This document shows, in pieces, positions 13,244-34,948 of a stretch of 64,000 nt of DNA. Source of the stretch: Darksidea phi (taxonomy: Eukaryota; Ascomycota; Dothideomycetes; Pleosporales; Lentitheciaceae); contig JASJFT010000021.1 in NCBI GenBank assembly GCA_030770425.1, forward strand, positions 248,001-312,000. Reading direction: 5' to 3'. The stretch's first letter is position 1. Every line of letters starts with the position of its first letter. The notes under the pieces were generated by a model. It saw nothing but the letters and a program-made list of their open reading frames with translations, did no database searches and had not been told where the DNA came from. Both the position numbers and the translations under genes were made by a program.

Positions 13244-16200
13244 CTACAACTCATCATGAGCTTGCTGAACAAACTCAGCCGCAGCACCCATCGGCTTCCC
13301 ATACGCACCATCATGATCTTTCTTCAAAGCATCAGCCGCAGCACCCAGCGGCTTCCCATACGCACCATCATGATCTTTCTTCAAAGCATCAGCCGCAGCA
13401 CCCAGCGGCTCCCCATACGCATCATCCGGATTATCCCCAACACAATGATGGCACCAGAAATGATTCCCCGGGTCATGCGCCTTCTTGACAGCCAGCAACT
13501 GCTCGTACGTTTTCTGGCTCCAGTACCTCGTCGTCCAGTTATGCATCACATACGAGCTCTCAGAAAAATAGCTGTGCGGCCCAAGTTTATATATCGTGTC
13601 CTTGCACTGCTGCGTCGTCAGGGTCCGCGCATTCCACAGCATGAGCGCCGAGCGGAAGCCCGGCGAGATGGCCGTGTCGCCCGGCCGCGAGCTCCCCAGA
13701 TTGCCCGTCAGCGACGTGTAGAGGTAGTGGAAGCCGCAGCGATAGCCGTTTCGATCCGGCGACGTTTTGTCGGGATTCTTCAGGGACCTAACGCAGATAT
13801 CCAGCACGTCCATCATAGTCGAGGCGAACTTTGTCTCCATGGCCTCGCGCGAGATAAAGACTGAGTTCTGAGAGCCGGTGGCCGCGTCCGAGGGCGGGTA
13901 CGGCGCCGGCAGCGGGTTCGTGACGGCGAGGGGAAACTGGTCGGCGGGCATGGTGAGGACGTACTCATAGGCCGACTTGAAGTTGCGTTCCTTGACGGCG
14001 TCCGTCTGCACCTGCAGCACGTCCTTGAGGCCATCGCGGAACAGAAGGTAGTCACGCTCCTTCTGACCGCCGGCGTAGAAGTACTCAAATTTGAACTGCC
14101 AAGTGACGTCGCAGAGGTCACCCGTCTTCTTGTACTGGGTGGTGTTGATGAAGAAGCCAGGCTGCGTGCTGACCTTGTGGTTGAGCCTCAGCTGCCACGC
14201 GGTGAAGCGAGTCCACATGTCGCGCAACCACTCGTAGCCAAACTTCCGCGAGTCCGGGCAAAAGGTGCCGCTCTGAGACATGACGACGTGGCTGAGGCCT
14301 CCGTCAGGCACAGCGTGGGCGCGGATCGTCATGGAGAGAATCACGCCCCAGACGCCGCCGCCGCCGCCGCGCATGGCCCAGAAAAGCTGCGGATTTTGGC
14401 GGCGACTGGCAATCTTCTTGTGGACGACGGGCTGGCCGTGGGTGCCGCGGCCGACCTGCAGAACTTCAATCTCCAGCAGATTATCGACCCCGAGGCCCAT
14501 AGACGGCGCAAAGGGCCCGTGACCGCCGCCGAGATGAAAGCCAACCACGCCCACGGTGGAGCACCAGCCCGATGCAATGACGCGGGAGTGCTCGGCCGAG
14601 AAGTGGTGCATCTCAGCGAAGATGGAGCCGGCGCCAAAGCGGAATGCGCCAGCGGGGGCTAGGGCCGGGTCCTCGTTCCATGTGGGCAGAAAGGCCTTGT
14701 CCTTGAGCAGGATTGTGCGGATGAGGATGCCGCCAGTCGGGCATGAGTTGCGGCTCTTGTACTCGTGGCCAGTGCCAGCAATGGCGATGCAGAGGCGGTG
14801 CCGCGCGGCAAATGTGAGGGCAGCGGCTATATGGCGCTCGATAAGCGGGAAGACAACGATGAAGGGGTTCCAATTGCGATACTCGTTTTGGTGCGCCGCC
14901 GCCTTGCACATGTCCGACGCGCTGTTCCACACGATCAGATCGTCGGCCGGATTGTCGATCGGGTTGAAGCACGGTTTCTGCATCTCAGCGACGTCGTCGT
15001 AGTAGTAGAGCGCCGCGAGGCCCAAGGGGCTGTTCCCCAAGCCATAGAAGGACTGGTTGTTGACGGAGTACATTGGTACCGGTGCTGGCTGCGGCTGCGA
15101 GTAGCTCCACCGGACGCCGAGCCGGGGCACCAAGGGGTCCAGCTCCAGCTCCAGCTTGCGGATGGCCGTCTTGGTGGGCCAGCAGCTGGAGTCTTGGGGC
15201 GTGCACCAGTCATGGCCGTCTTCCAGCGTTGCGCGCGTATCGCGGGTCTCGGGAGCGGATGCTGCTTGCACCGACTCGGCCGCGTCGCACGAGCCGGCGC
15301 CGCAGAAGTCGTTCTCGGGGCTGCACGAGTAGCGACAGTGGGCGTTGCACGGGTTGCACCGGCCCATGGCCCATTGCGTGTTTTGCAGCGTGTTGTCCGC
15401 GTCTCCTGCTGGCTGGTTCGGCGCTCCGCAGTCGAGCACGGCGTACGAATACACCGGCTGGTATTGGAACTGGAAGCGACAGGTCGTGATGGTGCCGCTG
15501 GCGCCGGCAAGGTGCACCAGGCTGGGATCCTCATCCGAGTGCGAGACGGAGTAGCGCTGCACGCCGCGACTGGGGAAGTTTGGCCATTGCAGCAGCGCCT
15601 GACCGTCGGCAGTAAAGCTCCATTGCGCGAGGCCGGCTTGATAGTGGCTGGATACCTGGAGTGAGCGCCACGAGCCCAGCAGCGCGCGGGGTGCTCCGGC
15701 AATGCCAGGCGGGAAGTGGCTCACCGGGCCGGGCTCGATCTTGGACTCGGTCTCGGGCGTAGACGCCGTGATAGTAGCATCGGGAGAAAAGGAACAGCCC
15801 GCCGTTGACGCCTTACAGCGGAACATGAGAAAGTTGCCGCACCCGGGCGTGTCCATGGCAGCGTAGAAGCTCGCGGGCCCCGGCTCGCCCGTGTGGTTGC
15901 ACGCCAGAAAGGCCGCCTCGAGCCCACCAACATCCGGCAGCCGCTGCACCAAGCAGTCCTCGACGTGGGGATGGGCGCCGCCGCAATGCAGCACCAGCTC
16001 CCCCGCACCGCGCCGCTCGTAGGTGCACGTCTGGGGATATGGGCTGTCGGTGGTCACGGTCAGGGTGTTGTCAGTGAAGGTCTGCGCGAACTCGAACTTG
16101 CCGGACCCGAGCTGCTCGGCGCCAAACGAGCGCCAGGTGCCCTCCCAGGGGGACGTGCTGTCGCTGGCGATGAAGGCTGGTAGAGCAAACTCCAGCGGCG

Positions 16201-17110
16201 CGAAGCCACCACTTGCATTCTCATTGCTGTTACTGCGACTGTCACTCGCCAGCGGCGCGTTGCTGAGGCCTAGCGGCACGGTGCTGTCCAGCTCCGCCGG
16301 CTGGCATATGTCCCAGCTGTCATGGCACGCAAAGCACTGGCCGATGCAGTCGGCCGACATGCGCGGCACGCTCGCCTTGTCGGTGCCTGTCCAGCCCACC
16401 GTGGCCAGATAGGCGCACTGCACGCACTGGGTGCGAATGAGCGGCTCCAGGTCCCCGCCCCGGCGCTGCAGCCCCAGGTTGTCGCGCAGCGCCGCGTTTT
16501 CGTTGATCTCGTTGGCCATCACAAACGCCGTGCGGAAGTAGGCCTCTTGCGACAGCCGGAACGCGGTGCCGTCCTGGCCGGGGATGACTGCGCAGGTGCC
16601 GTGCTTCATCCACTCGGACAGGATGAAGCATTGCATCGTGTTGTTGAACTTTGCGTTGGTCGGCCAGAAGTAGCCCAGCAGGCTATCAAACGTCGTGAGC
16701 ATCGTCTCGTCGAACTCCTGGCCATGGAGGCAGCCGTAGGGCTGGTCCTTCGAGCCACGGCCGAACCTGGACCCAGGCCACAGGCCGTGCAGCGTCCAGT
16801 TGGGCGACTCCGGGGCGAAGTCATTGACCTGCACCGCCAGTGTGTAGGCGTCGACGGGCAGCAGCCCGGCCGGCTGGCCCCATGCGCACAGAGGGAAAGG
16901 CGGCGGCTTCTGTACAAGCCTGCCGTGCTTCTTCTCCGTGCAGCCGCCATTCCACTTGAGGTCGCACGTTTTGGGTTGGAAGTTGAATTCATTGTATTGC
17001 CGCAGCAGGATCGGGTTGGAGGAGCAGCTGTCCGAGAAGCCGGAGCACCGCCAGGCGGCCACGATGCGGACCAGGCCCAGCAACAGGCCAAGTCGGGCAT
17101 GCCAAGTCAT
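13244..17110 (-). CDS. Secretory RNase T2 / FAD-linked oxidase fusion protein ending in HDEL
   Basis: A single intronless frame of 1288 residues. Residues 1-19 form a signal peptide (MTWHARLGLLLGLVRIVAA). Residues about 20-275 are an RNase T2 domain with both active-site boxes, WTLHGLWPG (His108) and SEWMKHGTC (Glu166, Lys169, His170), so RNA cleavage is expected. Residues about 320-445 and 476-600 are two similar Cys-rich modules, both opening with a GTWRS/GSWRS motif; I do not recognise them. Residues about 720-1226 are a PCMH-type FAD domain plus berberine-bridge C-terminal region. GTGH (His782) and GWCSTVG (Cys850) sit where bicovalent flavin attachment occurs in BBE-like oxidases. Three 19-residue repeats (1229-1285) precede the terminal HDEL, the fungal ER-retention signal. 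The gene is visibly more GC-rich than its flanks, which suggests transfer or strong constraint. The substrate is unknown. I chose the first ATG; the frame continues upstream only to a TTG. Confidence 0.9.
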   Translation of the reverse strand: MTWHARLGLLLGLVRIVAAWRCSGFSDSCSSNPILLRQYNEFNFQPKTCDLKWNGGCTEKKHGRLVQKPPPFPLCAWGQPAGLLPVDAYTLAVQVNDFAPESPNWTLHGLWPGSRFGRGSKDQPYGCLHGQEFDETMLTTFDSLLGYFWPTNAKFNNTMQCFILSEWMKHGTCAVIPGQDGTAFRLSQEAYFRTAFVMANEINENAALRDNLGLQRRGGDLEPLIRTQCVQCAYLATVGWTGTDKASVPRMSADCIGQCFACHDSWDICQPAELDSTVPLGLSNAPLASDSRSNSNENASGGFAPLEFALPAFIASDSTSPWEGTWRSFGAEQLGSGKFEFAQTFTDNTLTVTTDSPYPQTCTYERRGAGELVLHCGGAHPHVEDCLVQRLPDVGGLEAAFLACNHTGEPGPASFYAAMDTPGCGNFLMFRCKASTAGCSFSPDATITASTPETESKIEPGPVSHFPPGIAGAPRALLGSWRSLQVSSHYQAGLAQWSFTADGQALLQWPNFPSRGVQRYSVSHSDEDPSLVHLAGASGTITTCRFQFQYQPVYSYAVLDCGAPNQPAGDADNTLQNTQWAMGRCNPCNAHCRYSCSPENDFCGAGSCDAAESVQAASAPETRDTRATLEDGHDWCTPQDSSCWPTKTAIRKLELELDPLVPRLGVRWSYSQPQPAPVPMYSVNNQSFYGLGNSPLGLAALYYYDDVAEMQKPCFNPIDNPADDLIVWNSASDMCKAAAHQNEYRNWNPFIVVFPLIERHIAAALTFAARHRLCIAIAGTGHEYKSRNSCPTGGILIRTILLKDKAFLPTWNEDPALAPAGAFRFGAGSIFAEMHHFSAEHSRVIASGWCSTVGVVGFHLGGGHGPFAPSMGLGVDNLLEIEVLQVGRGTHGQPVVHKKIASRRQNPQLFWAMRGGGGGVWGVILSMTIRAHAVPDGGLSHVVMSQSGTFCPDSRKFGYEWLRDMWTRFTAWQLRLNHKVSTQPGFFINTTQYKKTGDLCDVTWQFKFEYFYAGGQKERDYLLFRDGLKDVLQVQTDAVKERNFKSAYEYVLTMPADQFPLAVTNPLPAPYPPSDAATGSQNSVFISREAMETKFASTMMDVLDICVRSLKNPDKTSPDRNGYRCGFHYLYTSLTGNLGSSRPGDTAISPGFRSALMLWNARTLTTQQCKDTIYKLGPHSYFSESSYVMHNWTTRYWSQKTYEQLLAVKKAHDPGNHFWCHHCVGDNPDDAYGEPLGAAADALKKDHDGAYGKPLGAAADALKKDHDGAYGKPMGAAAEFVQQAHDEL
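13256..13426 (-). repeat. Three 57-bp in-frame tandem repeats
   Basis: Three consecutive 57-bp units encode a 19-residue motif beginning D(D/G)AYG(E/K)P(L/M)GAAA. The first two coded units are nearly identical; the last diverges at its end and flows into the terminal DEL of the HDEL signal. Confidence 0.9.
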
Positions 17111-18103
17111 GTCTGCTTGGCGATGCGCTGCTGCCAAAAAAAAAGTGTTTCAATAGTGATTGGGACGGGAGCTTGAGGACGGACGCATTGACTCTATACA
17201 TATACTATATACATCCAAGATCAATATGCCAATAATCGCAACCTCTGTTCTACTCAGCTATTGTGATATTTCTTTTCAGGGTCCAGTCCAGGCCCTCTAC
17301 CCAGAGCTACCACACGGGAGGAGCCACATGCCAGCGAACGGTCCGCTAGCGGCCTTTGGCGAATGCCCTGCGTCCGAAACTATCAGAAGCGGTCAAACTT
17401 GAGCGAGCTGAGGCTTAGTGGCGAGCTGAAACAGCCTCAACTCAGTCAACCTACATATCAGGTCATTTGGCTTGTCGCGAATGTCTGTATTAGCATTGAT
17501 GGCTGGCTGAAATTGTCGGAAGCGACAGACTTAAGCGAGCGGATGCTTAGAGGCGAGCTGAGATAGAATCTCGACTCAGCCAACCTATTCATCAGGTCTT
17601 TTAAGAATGTCGGTAGTAGTGACGGACTATATTTACAGCGGGCCAAAGCTATCGGAAGCGGCAGACTTGAGCGAGTGGATGCTCAGTGGGAGAGCTGAGA
17701 TAGAATCTCGACTCAGCCAACCTATTCATCAGGTCTTTAGTCCCTCACGAATGTCTATATTGGTAACGGATTGGATTGACTGATAGCCACAGTTTTCAGC
17801 ATGGCTGAAACTAAACATACAGCTCATGAGCTGATTCGAAATTGGATGCATTATCTATATTTGCCACATAACTCGCTTGTAAGCTGAGGGATAATAGATT
17901 GTAGGCAACATTCTGTGTACTTCCTGATGGCGTTCTAGGATGGTCTCCCTTTCTTGTCAATTCACAAAGGTGCTGCATGGCATGAAAACATAAAGTGAAC
18001 ACTCCAGGCCAGTTACAACGGCGAATGAAAAGGTTACACAAAAGAGAACCAAAGCTTGTACTCACTTCTCCAATATTCGGCCACGTGCGATCCTGCCTCC
18101 ATC
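17111..18103. promoter_or_regulatory. Divergent promoter region of the fusion gene and the GMC gene
   Basis: About 1 kb between two divergent start codons with no open gene. It contains a nine-base A run just upstream of the fusion gene and three copies of a ~131-bp repeat in its middle. Confidence 0.6.
17377..17775 (+). repeat. Threefold tandem repeat of about 131 bp
   Basis: Three successive blocks start near 17379, 17508 and 17645. Each carries an (A)TCGGAAGCG..CAGACTT block, a GAGCGAG..GATGCTTAG block, then CTCGACTCAGCCAACCTATT and CATCAGGTCTTT, and ends in GAATGTC. Copies 2 and 3 are closest; copy 1 has more substitutions. Confidence 0.85.
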
Positions 18104-20114
18104 ATGAACACTGAAAGCCTCCCAGACTACATGACCATCCCAGGAAAAACGATCCCCAGCTTCCACTGCCGCGTTGGTAGAAATCACAATGATCGTCAGC
18201 CTATGCCAGCCAACACCTACGGGTACCCGGTGCCTGGCATGCAGGGACCTACTTCCACGTCGGCCATGGCCGATGACTACTTCGCGAGGTATGAAGCAGC
18301 ACGATTTGGATTTTGCAATATTTGTTCCCGCTCTGACCTTGATTCTACGTAGTGACCAGACTTGGGGGAATATCCTGGCCCATGGAGACTTTGATTACAT
18401 CGTTGTCGGTTCAGGCTTTACTGCTCTCGCGTTCATTCAGAAGGCCCTCGAACTCGACCCGTATGTCAAGATTCTTTGCTTAGAGCGTGGAGGCAAGTAT
18501 TTCCTATCAATTTCCCTTGTTAATTCATCACATCCCGTTAGAGTAGTGCCGTCGTCTAGTGTTTTAATTTGTTCCAGGCTTTTGGCTTCCTTCCCACTTC
18601 CAGAACCTACCAATTCCGTTCAAAATGGTTCTGGGAGGTCATTCCGAGACATTCCCCTGGACCCTCTCCCGCAAGACCTTTGAAACAAAGGAGCTCCGGT
18701 TCTGCCATGGCTCCTGCCCGTTTTTTGGCGGCCGATCCACATTCTGGTCCGCCTGGAGCCCAAGACCAAGTCTCGACCTCATGCGCGACTTTACCAAGTC
18801 CATGAAAAGGACTGCGGCATCAGAGAAATTCTGGAAAGAGGCCAAAGAGCTTTTGAATGTCACGTTCGCTAATCAGATCGATGATGGCATCTTTGGAAGT
18901 CTGCAGACTGCCATTGATAACATTCTGAAGGACTCGGTTGGCAATATTCCTACGGCGGACTATGCTGAGCCAGCCCCACTTGCTGTCGGACGACGCAGCC
19001 CAACTTCTCATCTGCGATTCAACAAGTTTTCTGTTCCTGGGCCTCTTCTTGGCATCTTGGAGCAACAGCGGCGACTGGCCAAAACGAACCAGGGATCGCC
19101 TTTAGAAATCATGGTAGACTGTGCCGTGAAAAGCATGGAGAAAGGCGACGATGATGATTTCGTCCGCGTCATCGAAACCAGCAAGGGCACTTTGTCATGG
19201 ACCGGTAACAAGACCAAGATCATCCTCTGCGCTGGAGCCATTCCCAACGCCACCATGTTGCTAAACTCTTTCGAGAGTTGCCGTGACACCGTTGGTAAGA
19301 GGCTTACCGGCCACTACGTGACCCATATCTCAGCAAGATGCCCTGTGAAAAACATCAAGGGCTGGAAAAAGGAAGGCACGCTCCAAATCTCTGCTCAATA
19401 CGTGGCTGGCAAGGATCCGAAGACTGGCCTCCAGTATCATGTCTCGGTCACGGCAATAAATAGTCCCAACCCAAAAGACGATGCCGAGGACGCGGCTCGC
19501 GAATGTCCAGACTATGCTGCTGCGGCGACCCTTGACCAGCTTACTGGCTCTGAGGACCACGTGGTGTTTGGTATGAAGCCGTCCTTTATACGAGCAGATG
19601 GAAGCTAACCTAGAACTGTTTAGTCTGCTCTGCTCTTGGGGAGTTCAACGAGAAGAACCCCAAGAATTATGTCAAACTCAACAAAGGTGCTGACCCGACT
19701 TGCAACGTCACCCTGCAATACACCTTGAGCGACGAGGACTATGGCGCTTGGGATGCGATGGATCAGGGAACCTACGATACCATCATCCAAATGGCAGGCG
19801 GTGCTGACCACGAGTGCGATATCGACTGGTGGGATGAGACAACTCATGGCTGGATCAAGACGAAACCCGCAGTCGACACCATTCGAATCCCTGGTATTGT
19901 TCACGAGTCCAGCACCTGTTTCATGGGACCCAAGGAAATCGGTGGTTCCGTAGATGAGCTCTATCGTCCTCATGGGATTGAGAATGTTTATGTGACTGGA
20001 GCTGCCCTTTTTCCAACTGCGGGGAGTTGGAATCCCACGATGACGATGTGTGGATACGCTCAAGACTTGGCTCGCAAGCTGCATGAAATGAAGCCTCAAG
20101 AGAACGATCAGTGA
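18104..20114 (+). CDS. GMC-type FAD-dependent oxidoreductase
   Basis: Four exons (18104-18288, 18353-18492, 18578-19570, 19624-20114) give 602 residues. The FAD dinucleotide-binding motif DYIVVGSGFTALAF is at about residue 80. The C-terminal GMC domain shows IVHESSTCFMGP and FPTAGSWNPTMTM, supplying the usual catalytic His and Asn. Spacing and the short FAD region resemble pyranose-oxidase-like GMC enzymes more than glucose or choline oxidases, but the substrate cannot be read from sequence. No signal peptide is seen. Intron 2 (18493-18577) begins GCAAGT instead of GT; the AG|GCAAGT donor is the standard context for rare GC-AG introns. It is divergent from the RNase/FAD fusion gene. Confidence 0.88.
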
Positions 20115-20655
20115 TGTGCACCGCACCGCACCGTTCTGGTATGAATGGTGGCCTGACTGTACCGTCTCTATCTTTGGCCGCCGTCTAGGAAACTTTGCGG
20201 AGTCCTTGAATATTTCAAAAGTAGGCGATATCGTACCAAATCTTTGGTGTTTTATGAGCCACTGGCGTGCGTGAGATCTGATGGCACATACGCCAAACAA
20301 TGGCGGTTTAGCAAATACACTCGCTGACAATGCTAGCACTGCTGAAATACCCAAGTTGCTCAACTTTTCTTCATGGTTTTAGTACGTACAAGCATTAATC
20401 TCAAGTTCTCCAGCAAAAGGGGTTATATCGTGATAAGGTACCGTGGTACAGATGGATCGACGATGAACCGATTGGCTGATACAAACCGCAGGGGTATGAA
20501 TCTGATTCCTCAGCCTCAGGATTCCCATGCAGCCGATCCGAACCCCGAGGTCGGGGCCATCGGTGGGTTTGGATAATGTGCGTTGGGGCTTGCGTAAGAG
20601 ATTCGTCGTCGTCGGATATCTCTTCGCTTCCGGTCAAAATCTCAAGAAAATACCA
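20115..20655. other. Intergenic region
   Basis: Holds the GMC gene's 3' end and unassigned sequence leading to the 5' break of the NLR relic. Confidence 0.4.
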
Positions 20656-21411
20656 CGATTGATGGTGTGTGCAAAACTCACAGCGTTTCCACCTGGATTA
20701 GACCCTTTGTACAGGCGAATGCTGGACTACATATGCAAGTCAGAGGCCCCAGACCTCTGCAAGCGGTTACTTGCCTCTATCGCAACGGTTTACCGACCTG
20801 TCACGTTGCAAGAGCTGGCATCTCTTGTTGAGCTGCTTGACGAGGTTGTTGATCTCGAGTCGTTACAGGAGATTATTAGCCTTTGCGGCTCGTTTCTCAC
20901 GGTTCGAGACGGGGTTGTTTATTTTGTACATCAATCAGCAAAGGACTTCTTACTTGAAGAGGTTTCAGATGAGATCTTTCCATCTGGCAGGGAAGCGGTT
21001 CACTACGCACTCTTTTCAAGATCACTCTAGGTCATGTCCATGACGCTCCAACGAGACATGTACACACTAGGGACGCTAGGATATCCAGCCGAGCAGATTG
21101 AGCCACCAGACCCAGATCCACTAGCAGCGTCACGCTATCCATGCATCTACTGGATCGATCACCTCTGTGACTGGAATCCTAGCTCTTCTGGAGAGGATGA
21201 AGTTGATCTACAGGACAGAGGCGCTGTTAACAACTTCATACGACAGCGATACCTCTATTGGCTGGAGGCTCTTAGCCTTTGCAAGAGTATGTCAAAAGGA
21301 GTCGTGTCAATAGCAAGACTTGAGGTCTTTATGCAGGTAATGTATAAGCTTGTCATGCTATATGCAACACATGCTAACGTAACCTAGGGAAGAGCAGATG
21401 CCCTCGAGCCC
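20656..21411 (+). pseudogene. Truncated NACHT-type (NLR-like) protein relic
   Basis: From about 20674 the frame reads KLTAFPPGLDPLYRRMLDYI and, after a stretch on ATVYRPVTLQELASLVE, FVHQSAKDFLLEE. This is the winged-helix region that follows the NACHT ATPase in fungal NLRs of the HET/NWD type. A TAG at 21028-21030 interrupts the same frame (FSRSL-stop-VMSMTLQRD), again one C-to-T change from Gln. The frame then continues to FMQ, and a 51-nt intron (21337-21387) joins GRADA before similarity to the family is lost. Both the NACHT P-loop part and any WD40/ankyrin repeats are missing. It is a non-functional internal fragment of a self/non-self recognition or immunity-type receptor. Confidence 0.8.
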
Positions 21412-22982: not shown

Positions 22983-25135
22983 CTACCACGCCGCTCTTCT
23001 AAACCTTCCTTTCCCGTTCGCCTTGCCGTTGCCATTCGCATCCGCATTTGCGTTGCCATTCGCATTTGCGTTGCCATTAGCATTTGCGTTGCCATTCGCA
23101 TTTGCGTTGCCATTAGCATTCGCGTTGCCATTCGCCGCGTCGTTGCCGTTAGTATTTGCGTTGCCATTTGCATTCGCGTCGTTGCCGTTAGCATTTGCGT
23201 TGCCATTTGCATTCGCGTCGTTGCCATTAGCATTTGCGTCGCCATTAGCATTCGCGTCGCCATTAGCATTTGCGTCGCCATTAGCATTCGCGTCGCCATT
23301 AGCATTCGCGTCGCCATTCACCGCGTCGTTGCCGTTAGCATTTGCGTCGCCATTAGCATTTGCGTCGCCGTTAGCATTTGCGTCGCCATTAGCATTTGCG
23401 TCGCCGTTAGCATTCGCGTCGCCATTAGCATTTGCGTTGCCATTCGCCGCGTCGTTGCCGTTAGCATTTGCGTTGCCATTTGCATTCGCGTCGTTGCCAT
23501 TAGCATTTGCGTCGCCATTAGCTTTTGCGTCGCCATTAGCATTTGTGTTGCCATTCGCCGCGTCGCCATTAGCATTTGCGTTGCCATTCGCCGCGTCGTT
23601 GCCATTAGCATTCGCGTTGCCATTCGCCGCGTCAGTGCCGTTAGCATTCGCGTTGCCATTCGCATTCGCGGCGTTGCCGTTCGCATTTGCATTGCCATTC
23701 GCCGCGTCGTTGCCGCTAGCATTCGCGTTGCCATTCGCCGCGTCATTGCCATTCGCATTCGCGGCGTTGCCATTCGCATTCGCGGCGTTGCCATTCGCAT
23801 TCGCGGCGTTGCCATTCGCATTCGCGGCGTTGCCATTCGCATTCGCGGCGTTGCCATTCGCATTCGCGGCGTTGCCATTCGCATTCGCGGCGTTGCCATT
23901 CGCATTCGCGGCGTTGCCATTCGCATTTNNNNNNNNNNNNNNNNNNNNNNNNNNNNNNNNNNNNNNNNNNNNNNNNNNNNNNNNNNNNNNNNNNNNNNNN
24001 NNNNNNNNNNNNNNNNNNNNNNNNGCGTTGCCATTCGCATTCGCGGCGTTGCCATTCGCATTCGCGGCGTTGCCATTCGCATTCGCGGCGTTGCCATTCG
24101 CATTTGCATTGCCGTTGGCTCCGTTCCCTTTGTCTCCGTTTCCTTTGGCTCCCTTGTTCTTCACGATGCCCTCCTGGTCCTGGTTCTGACTCCCATCGCC
24201 GTTCTTGTCATTCGGCGACGGCTGTTTCCCAGGATTGCCGGATTGAACCACCTCGAACTTGGTGCAGTCATCTTGGGCCCCGCGCTGGGCAACAGGCATA
24301 TTGACCGGCTGGTGGTTCCGGGCCGCGATCATGGTGCACACGCGGTAGATACCGACAGGGAGGCCATCCGTGACAACGGCCTGGAGCAGACCCTGTCCAT
24401 TTCCGGCGTCGTCGATGCCTTTAAAGAAGGCAAATTTGGTCGGGTCTGGAGGCGTCGTCGCTTGCATATCGCCGATGTCTTGAACCGTAACGTGGCAATG
24501 ACCGATGATGTCGCCCTTCTCGTCCAGATCTTGCGGCGCGGTGTAGTAGTTTGTTGTTGGGTTGACGAAGAAACCGGCGTTGAGGTGCTGCGTCTGCACT
24601 TCGATGTTGAACGTGGTGTCAGAGGGAATTTGGACGCCCACTTTGGGGTTGGTGATCACGGCAGTGATCATGTTGGTCTGGGCGGGGATCTTGCCCATGG
24701 GGATGCCATTGCAGGACCCTGTCAGAATTTGCATGCCGTTGGTGAGTTCCTGGCCCTCGCAGAAGTTGATGAAGTTTGCTTTATCGCTAGCGGGCAAATT
24801 AGCGCGTGCGACGACTATTGAGGTAGCAGGGAAGCTTACACAGCTGAGGGTGCTTGGCCGGGTTTGATGCCCTCAGTTCCGTCTTCCTGACCGGTGAGGG
24901 TGCTGGCGGTCTGAATCAGGTTGTTGTTCAAGCAGCTTTGGCCACCTTGTTGGCCACCTTGTTGACCACCTTGTTGACCTCCTCGTTGGCCACCTTGCTG
25001 ACCTCCTTGCTGACCTCCTTGTTGTCCTCCTCGCTGCCTAGCGACTACATTGGCCCGGTGAGAAATATCCACAGCGGCTCCCTCGATGAGACCTGCTGAT
25101 GCGAGGAGCGCGATTGGGATCAAGTGAGAAAACAT
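22983..25135 (-). CDS. Secreted protein with QQGG repeats, conserved fungal domain and Asn/Gly/Ala tail
   Basis: Exon 1 is 24840-25135, a 53-nt intron follows (24787-24839), and exon 2 is 22983-24786. The start MFSHLIPIALLASAGLIEGA is a signal peptide. Gln-Gln-Gly-Gly repeats occupy about residues 36-65. A conserved domain of roughly 200 residues follows, from SCLNNN through FINFCEGQELTNGMQ and GHCHVTVQD to NHQPVNMPVAQRGAQDDC. This domain recurs in many fungal secreted proteins of unknown function, some mislabelled ribosomal protein S17 in databases. The rest is a low-complexity array of NANGN/NAANANG units, broken by 96 undetermined bases, ending in KGRFRRAAW. Total about 699 residues including the gap. 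A cell-wall or extracellular-matrix role is plausible but inferred. Confidence 0.8.
22998..24117 (-). repeat. 18/21-bp minisatellite coding for Asn-Gly-Ala repeats
   Basis: The array is made of 18-bp and 21-bp units built on GTTGCCATTCGCATT-like blocks (plus-strand view). Units are heterogeneous at the 3' end of the gene and near-identical 21-bp units occur on both sides of the gap, indicating recent expansion there. All unit lengths are multiples of three, preserving the frame. Confidence 0.95.
23929..24024. other. Assembly gap (96 N)
   Basis: Undetermined bases inside the most homogeneous part of the minisatellite. The true number of repeat units is unknown. Confidence 1.
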
Positions 25136-34811: not shown

Positions 34812-34930
34812 ACATACGACCATAGGACGCTGAATACAAGGCTTCCCGTTCGCTCAGCCATATTTAAGCAGCGTACCGGTGGACTAGTAGTTAGGTGGGT
34901 GACCACTAGCGAATCCCCACTGTTGTATGT
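34812..34930 (+). rRNA. 5S ribosomal RNA gene (isolated copy)
   Basis: 119 bases starting ACATACGACCATAGG and ending CTGTTGTATGT. The ends pair as helix I, GCTTCCCGT.CGCTCAGCC is the fungal 5S core, and GGTGGGTGACCAC is the helix IV/V block. ACGCTG pairs with CAGCGT to form helix II. An isolated copy next to protein genes is normal for filamentous ascomycetes, where 5S genes are dispersed. Compared with the fungal consensus I remember, there are a few C-to-T or G-to-A differences (for example CATATTTAAG and GTTAGGTGGG), so it could be a weakly mutated copy. Confidence 0.92.
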
Positions 34931-34948
34931 TTTTGATTTTTTTTTTGG
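34931..34948 (+). terminator. RNA polymerase III terminator of the 5S gene
   Basis: T-run directly after the mature 5S end (four T, GA, then a long T tract), the usual Pol III stop. Confidence 0.8.

What the first reader, a model, noticed from the sequence alone, without database searches (positions are those of the whole stretch)
13244..17110. RNase T2 joined to a berberine-bridge-type FAD oxidase in one secretory protein
One intronless frame carries an intact RNase T2 domain (His108, Glu166, Lys169, His170), two copies of an unrecognised Cys-rich GTWRS/GSWRS module, and a PCMH-type FAD domain with both residues used for bicovalent flavin attachment (His782, Cys850). I know of no described protein with this architecture. 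An RNA-cleaving and an oxidising activity in the same polypeptide would be new, for example a two-part secreted or ER-lumenal defence factor.
Basis: partly seen in the sequence, partly recalled or inferred. Interest (0 to 1): 0.88.

Follow-up and report, generated by a model that had tools for sequence, protein, structure and literature searches.

The report
Fungal RNase-oxidase fusion with ER tag
A fungal gene joins an RNA-cutting enzyme and a flavin oxidase in one secretory-pathway protein; the same fusion is kept, with both active sites intact, in dozens of other fungal records, about half of which end in the tag that holds proteins inside the endoplasmic reticulum.

Summary
Window 17110-13244 (- strand) is one uninterrupted 1288-aa frame: signal peptide (by eye), RNase T2 domain, two family-specific modules, BBE/VAO-type FAD oxidase, and a tail ending HDEL. 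It is no oddity of one genome: of 73 database rows, 67 carry both Pfam domains and 63 cover at least 89% of it; every row with an organism name is fungal. Both active sites are kept: of 72 aligned rows, RNase His108 in 69, Glu166 69, Lys169 69, His170 70; FAD anchors His782 71, Cys850 72; 9 of the 12 misses are gaps. The middle modules are predicted as two 8-stranded lipocalin-like barrels and match no Pfam family over cut-off. New here: 35 of 67 tails end in DEL against a shuffled mean of 0.07, while most residues just before vary. In one large clade the protein is therefore very probably retained in the ER. Five paper searches aimed at the family listed no description of it. What the two activities do together is unknown; I favour an ER-stored, damage-released RNase/peroxide weapon, with modest confidence.

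The parts
13244..17110 (-). whole gene, one uninterrupted frame, 1288 aa RNase T2 / FAD-oxidase fusion
   Evidence: full-length relatives
17054..17110 (-). signal peptide (res 1-19), judged by eye
   Evidence: sequence; hydrophobic N-terminus in relatives
16481..16810 (-). Ribonuclease_T2 domain match (res 101-210)
   Evidence: PDB sequence matches
16787..16789 (-). RNase T2 catalytic His108 (LHGLWP motif)
16601..16615 (-). RNase T2 second motif Glu166-Trp-Met-Lys169-His170
16304..16426 (-). Cys-rich extension after the T2 domain (Cys229, 232, 255, 259, 262, 269, each kept in 90% or more of the rows that have a residue there)
15815..16141 (-). middle module 1 (res 324-432), GTWRS, predicted 8-stranded lipocalin-like barrel
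   Evidence: no Pfam match over cut-off
15356..15676 (-). middle module 2 (res 479-585), GSWRS, predicted 8-stranded lipocalin-like barrel
   Evidence: no Pfam match over cut-off
15287..15358 (-). Cys cluster (res 585-608)
14441..14860 (-). FAD_binding_4 / PCMH-type domain (res 751-890)
14765..14767 (-). His782, expected 8-alpha flavin attachment
   Evidence: 71 of 72 rows
14561..14563 (-). Cys850, expected 6-S flavin attachment
   Evidence: 72 of 72 rows
13442..13546 (-). BBE C-terminal domain (res 1189-1223), ending WCHHC
13275..13426 (-). 57-bp (19-aa) tandem repeat, 2.7 copies, in the variable tail
   Evidence: by eye not in the other tails
13247..13258 (-). C-terminal HDEL, ER-retention type signal

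Best explanation
This is a member of an undescribed fungal family of bifunctional secretory-pathway enzymes. Shown: the fused frame, both domain memberships by sequence, preservation of the four RNase and two flavin-anchoring residues, and a C-terminal DEL-type ending conserved in one clade. Inferred: the signal peptide sends the chain into the ER, where it folds with many disulfides; the T2 domain cleaves single-stranded RNA by the His/Glu/Lys/His transesterification; the oxidase carries FAD bound to His782 and Cys850 and passes electrons from a bulky alcohol, sugar or secondary metabolite to O2, making H2O2; the two lipocalin-like barrels join the enzymes and may bind a ligand; Erd2-type receptors return the xDEL forms to the ER. 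Most speculative step: the protein is stored in the ER and acts when the hypha is broken or grazed, much as KDEL-type beta-glucosidases are thought to wait in plant ER bodies, attacking RNA and releasing peroxide in a fungivore or competitor. I put about 0.9 on the anatomy, 0.75 on ER residence, 0.3 on the stored-defence role.
Against: The full-length model is weak (mean pLDDT 65, pTM 0.46) and its listed fold matches are all oxidases, so the T2 fold rests on sequence only. 31 of 67 tails lack DEL/HEL, among them all rows outside the one clade, which under my chosen root includes the deepest branches; so retention is not common to the family, and related rows are not independent. No expression, activity or localisation data. 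RNA is not a known ER-lumenal substrate (recalled). No substrate was found for the nearest solved oxidase, MtVAO615 (PMC6017366, passages). Some copies look broken, as for a dispensable gene. The ER-body review itself says direct evidence for the defence role was lacking. Nothing tested here bears directly on defence.
Confidence: 0.55

Rival explanations
1. A secreted A/B-type toxin: RNase as the toxic part, barrels as the binding part, and the DEL tail used for retrograde transport inside the victim's cells rather than for retention in the producer.
For: K28 carries a C-terminal HDEL used for retrograde transport (PMC4974620, abstract and start of introduction); the mushroom nematotoxin CCTX2 carries HSEL whose removal lowered toxicity (PMC13324453, passages). 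A secreted T2 RNase contributes to Fusarium oxysporum virulence (PMC9366063, title and abstract start).
Against: A chain with a signal peptide and an exposed DEL end made by a fungus should first be held in its own ER; the DEL tails are exposed at the very end. The oxidase is not explained.
Confidence: 0.2
2. A biosynthetic ER enzyme: the oxidase modifies a glycan or secondary metabolite in the ER and the T2 domain serves as a binding or accessory domain.
For: Bicovalent flavoprotein oxidases prefer oligosaccharides or secondary metabolites (PMC6017366, abstract start); a GMC-type oxidoreductase gene lies next door, divergently oriented.
Against: The four T2 catalytic residues are kept in 69, 69, 69 and 70 of 72 rows, unlike a decayed domain. 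Whether the GMC neighbour is conserved elsewhere could not be tested.
Confidence: 0.2
3. An anti-RNA-virus factor in the endomembrane system of the fungus.
For: ER-directed RNase with preserved active site; gene history at odds with species groups, as often in defence genes.
Against: Mycovirus RNA is thought to be on the cytosolic side (recalled); no virus data here.
Confidence: 0.1
4. A gene-prediction or assembly artefact joining two neighbours.
For: None found.
Against: The same join at 54-82% identity in many separate assemblies; single uninterrupted frame.
Confidence: 0.01

Closest known systems
RNase T2 family (PF00445), e.g. RNase LE, RNase MC1, RNase Rh
   Same: Both conserved active-site motifs with His/Glu/Lys/His; signal peptide by eye
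   Different: Usually a stand-alone secreted, vacuolar or lysosomal enzyme (recalled); here fused to a FAD oxidase with a Cys-rich extension and, in one clade, an ER tag
MtVAO615 and MtVAO713, VAO/BBE-type flavoprotein oxidases of Myceliophthora
   Same: Best sequence (MtVAO615) and fold matches; His and Cys for bicovalent FAD; BBE domain
   Different: 21% and 17% identical over the aligned fold; the solved chains of 548 and 571 residues hold no RNase or barrels
Lipocalins / calycins (Bla g 4, nitrophorins, LTBP1, VDE lipocalin domain)
   Same: GxW at the start of an 8-stranded barrel in each middle module
PYK10-type beta-glucosidases of plant ER bodies
   Same: Works-like analogy: an enzyme held in the ER by [K/H/R][D/E]EL (PMC3947992, passages)
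   Different: Unrelated enzyme family, plants only
Yeast killer toxin K28 and mushroom CCTX2
   Same: Fungal toxins with HDEL-like ends that exploit Erd2
   Different: Different domains; K28 is virus-encoded, CCTX2 is cytoplasmic

Membership tests
RNase T2 | Profile match over cut-off | tested here: met
   PF00445 54.8 bits, cut-off 26; 38 of 38 scanned members match at E 5 or better
RNase T2 | Catalytic His, Glu, Lys, His in two motifs | tested here: met
RNase T2 | T2 fold | tested here: inconclusive
   full model pLDDT 65; the listed fold matches cover the oxidase part only
RNase T2 | RNA cleavage activity | not testable with these tools
   needs protein
BBE-like / VAO-type FAD oxidase | FAD_binding_4 and BBE profile matches | tested here: met
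   both over cut-off; 38 of 38 scanned members match at E 5 or better
BBE-like / VAO-type FAD oxidase | VAO fold | tested here: met
BBE-like / VAO-type FAD oxidase | His and Cys for bicovalent FAD | tested here: met
   residues present, 71 and 72 of 72 rows; the bonds themselves not tested
BBE-like / VAO-type FAD oxidase | Oxidase activity with O2 | not testable with these tools
   needs protein
Lipocalin superfamily (middle modules) | GxW motif and 8-stranded barrel | tested here: inconclusive
ER-resident soluble proteins | N-terminal signal peptide plus C-terminal [KHR]DEL | tested here: met
   HDEL read directly, conserved ending; signal peptide by eye only
ER-resident soluble proteins | Located in the ER | not testable with these tools
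   needs microscopy or fractionation

The most novel reading that the evidence does not exclude
Fungi keep a pre-made two-enzyme weapon in the ER: one chain that destroys RNA and makes peroxide, held harmless by compartment and released on wounding, the fungal counterpart of the plant ER-body system, with the ER tag gained in one clade and lost again several times.
Probability: 0.25. Interest if true: 0.85.

Novelty: new variant of a known kind. Interest (0 to 1): 0.62.

Why it matters
An RNase and an oxidase in one polypeptide, both kept intact across ascomycetes and also present in the basidiomycete Naganishia, is a combination for which the paper searches listed no description. ER retention of an RNase T2 would raise a direct question: what RNA, or what other job, is there in the ER lumen? 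The family offers natural with-tag and without-tag versions, including two untagged copies in the laboratory fungus Sordaria macrospora, so the question can be tested.

Tried and rejected
Two-gene artefact: rejected. Transposon (Starship) cargo: PF11917, the captain domain (recalled), gives 9 matches in the genome, none on contig C124 where the window lies; counts are lower bounds, so not excluded. Prokaryotic relatives: the search for related loci in genome contigs used only two peptide patterns; 49 stretches matched, none was confirmed, weak evidence. Inter-phylum transfer: in the 71-row tree the Naganishia (Basidiomycota) proteins group with some Trichoderma, but in a 40-row tree all 37 ascomycete rows form one side (support 82), so this is unresolved. 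Clade tests, 40 of 72 rows, quick trees: Fusarium sensu lato rejected (15 rows, p 1.7e-61), Hypocreales rejected (22 rows, p 0.0018), Trichoderma not rejected (p 0.095), Dothideomycetes not rejected (p 0.77; the held tree even scored better, so the free search was not thorough). The groups were chosen after the first tree was seen. Old duplications with losses explain the conflict as well as transfer does.

GC3 of 0.81 against 0.54-0.64 in nine other frames of the window, not all proven genes, fits transfer or high expression equally; the 0.47 printed for the 'FAD part' came from an out-of-frame slice of mine and is discarded. In one search my slice of module 2 alone was also out of frame and is discarded; the whole middle in that call was in frame (0 families), and both modules were rescanned in frame (best weak hits DcaP E 0.19-0.31 and Anti-TRAP E 0.076, all under cut-off). 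Weak hits: Anti-TRAP in 4 of 38 members (E 0.008 at best) and six other families in one member each (E 0.011-0.32); I took these as chance. Middle modules as internal duplicates: not supported (weak test). Naming the organism by an ITS pattern: no match. RIP indices show no sign at the gene (thresholds recalled).
Full report
The thing itself. Window 17110-13244 on the - strand is a single frame of 1288 aa from ATG to TAG. The genome is eukaryotic and, I infer, a filamentous fungus: the window also codes for a U1-70K protein, DOT1, a P-type ATPase and a 5S rRNA; the assembly has 51.35 Mb in 477 contigs, with the window on contig C124. The species was not identified. The protein search of that genome lists 28 matches: one is this gene at full length, the other 27 all fall within query residues 740-1227, the oxidase half. 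The genome has four T2 profile matches at three places, one of them this gene.

Domains. Pfam gives Ribonuclease_T2 (res 101-210), FAD_binding_4 (751-890) and BBE (1189-1223), all over cut-off. By sequence the nearest solved structures are MtVAO615 and other BBE/VAO oxidases for the C-terminal part, and plant and fungal T2 RNases for the N-terminal part.

The family. A full-length search returned 73 rows (P0002-P0074), one of which, P0074, is a distant LRR/FAD protein at 28% over 13% of the query. Of the 73, 67 carry both PF00445 and PF01565 and 63 cover at least 89% of the query. Every row with an organism name is fungal: Fusarium/Neocosmospora, Colletotrichum, Sordaria, Pseudoneurospora, Cercophora, Cladorrhinum, Parachaetomium, Parathielavia, Apiospora, Trichoderma, Beauveria, Stachybotrys, Myriangium, Elsinoe, Boeremia (the last three Dothideomycetes) and Naganishia (Basidiomycota). 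A second search with a profile of eleven members chosen for divergence returned 71 rows, all of them already found. A search with the middle part alone returned 10 rows; compared with this protein they are collinear pieces of the same family. Some of these are partial models or broken copies; one (P0075, 614 aa) ends in the linker before the oxidase. In these searches the middle modules were not found outside the family. All three searches rank candidates by shared exact words and scored only the top 8000 or so, so more distant relatives may be missed.

Both activities look selected. In an alignment of 72 rows (P0001-P0073 less P0071) His108 is kept in 69 (3 gaps), Glu166 in 69 (1 Thr, 2 gaps), Lys169 in 69 (1 Gln, 2 gaps), His170 in 70 (2 gaps), His782 in 71 (1 Tyr) and Cys850 in 72. 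A domain kept only as a relic would not be expected to show this.

The tail. After the conserved WCHHC motif the proteins end in a tail of 15-65 residues. Of 73 rows, this protein included (P0001-P0073), 67 have that motif; 35 of the 67 end in DEL (18 KDEL, 8 RDEL, 6 HDEL, 2 QDEL, 1 GDEL) and one in KHEL, 31 in neither. Shuffled tails give 0.07 on average and never more than 2 in 2000 rounds. On a 71-row tree built without the tails and rooted on P0069 and P0070, all DEL/HEL rows fall in one clade of 50 (47 with a readable tail, 35 with DEL/HEL); none of the 21 rows outside has it; the fewest changes are 7, with no shuffled control. Within that clade, in the 42 tails of 24 residues or more, positions -1, -2 and -3 agree at 0.86, 0.78 and 0.69 and positions -4 to -18 at 0.10-0.32; the first 13 residues of the tail, next to the enzyme, are also mostly conserved (0.47-1.00 save one at 0.28). 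So a free spacer lies between a fixed start and a fixed DEL end: the pattern of an ER-retention signal. This window's own tail has gained a 19-aa repeat (2.7 copies) and still ends in HDEL. One of the two most divergent rows, P0069, instead ends in a hydrophobic segment that looks like a membrane anchor (by eye).

History. The gene tree conflicts with species groupings: Fusarium as one clade is rejected (p 1.7e-61) and Hypocreales also (p 0.0018), while Dothideomycetes and Trichoderma are not (40 of 72 rows, quick trees, groups chosen after a first tree). S. macrospora has two copies. Transfer and old duplication with loss are both possible; the two trees place Naganishia differently.

Mechanism. 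From established knowledge of the families: T2 RNases cut single-stranded RNA by transesterification; bicovalent BBE-type oxidases oxidise bulky substrates and pass electrons to O2, giving H2O2. MtVAO615, the nearest solved relative, gave no activity on the carbohydrates tested and no lead from other compounds (PMC6017366, passages), so no substrate can be carried over. Because signal peptide and DEL end are on the same chain, I read ER residence in the producer as the simplest meaning; toxins that use such ends inside victims (K28, PMC4974620, abstract and start of introduction; CCTX2, PMC13324453, passages) are the main alternative. A precedent for storing enzymes in the ER is the beta-glucosidase of plant ER bodies (PMC3947992, passages), a review whose abstract says direct evidence for the defence role was lacking. 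The defence reading is an analogy, not a result.

Novelty. Nine paper searches were made. Five aimed at this architecture or at locus tags of its members (the last returned nothing) and four at neighbouring topics. No listed title or abstract start describes the fusion, but listings were capped, the listed papers of the five were not opened, and subscription journals are largely not held. Both enzyme families are known, so I file it as a new variant of a known kind: an undescribed, conserved fusion family.

Noticed in passing
window 17394-17738: Three imperfect tandem copies of a ~135-bp repeat lie in the intergenic space upstream of the gene, between it and a divergent GMC-type oxidoreductase gene.
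   Followed up: partly
window 18174-20114 (+): Neighbouring divergent gene; one of its frames (19725-20114) matches GMC_oxred_C. A second oxidoreductase beside this one; whether the pair is kept in other fungi could not be tested.
   Followed up: partly
window 20527-21030 (+): Frame matching GPIID_WHD, a winged-helix domain I recall from fungal NACHT/NLR-type proteins; looks like a remnant or one exon.
   Followed up: no
window 22983-24797 (-): Long 18-bp tandem array (about 47 copies at 23044-23928) coding an Asn/Gly/Ala-rich repeat on the - strand, with a masked stretch inside the frame.
   Followed up: no
window 34812-34931 (+): 5S rRNA gene, 82.7 bits, lying among protein genes.
   Followed up: no
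P0069: One of the two most divergent relatives, from an unnamed source, ends in a membrane-anchor-like segment with a basic tail instead of a DEL signal, possibly another way to stay in the endomembrane system.
   Followed up: partly
P0072 and P0078; P0079, P0080: P0078 covers residues 1-519 and P0072 residues 534-1246 of the fusion, and both list a longest contig of 20,234 bases, so one copy may be split by a frameshift or sequencing error. P0079 and P0080 (Boeremia, Ascochyta) also look like broken or misannotated copies.
   Followed up: partly
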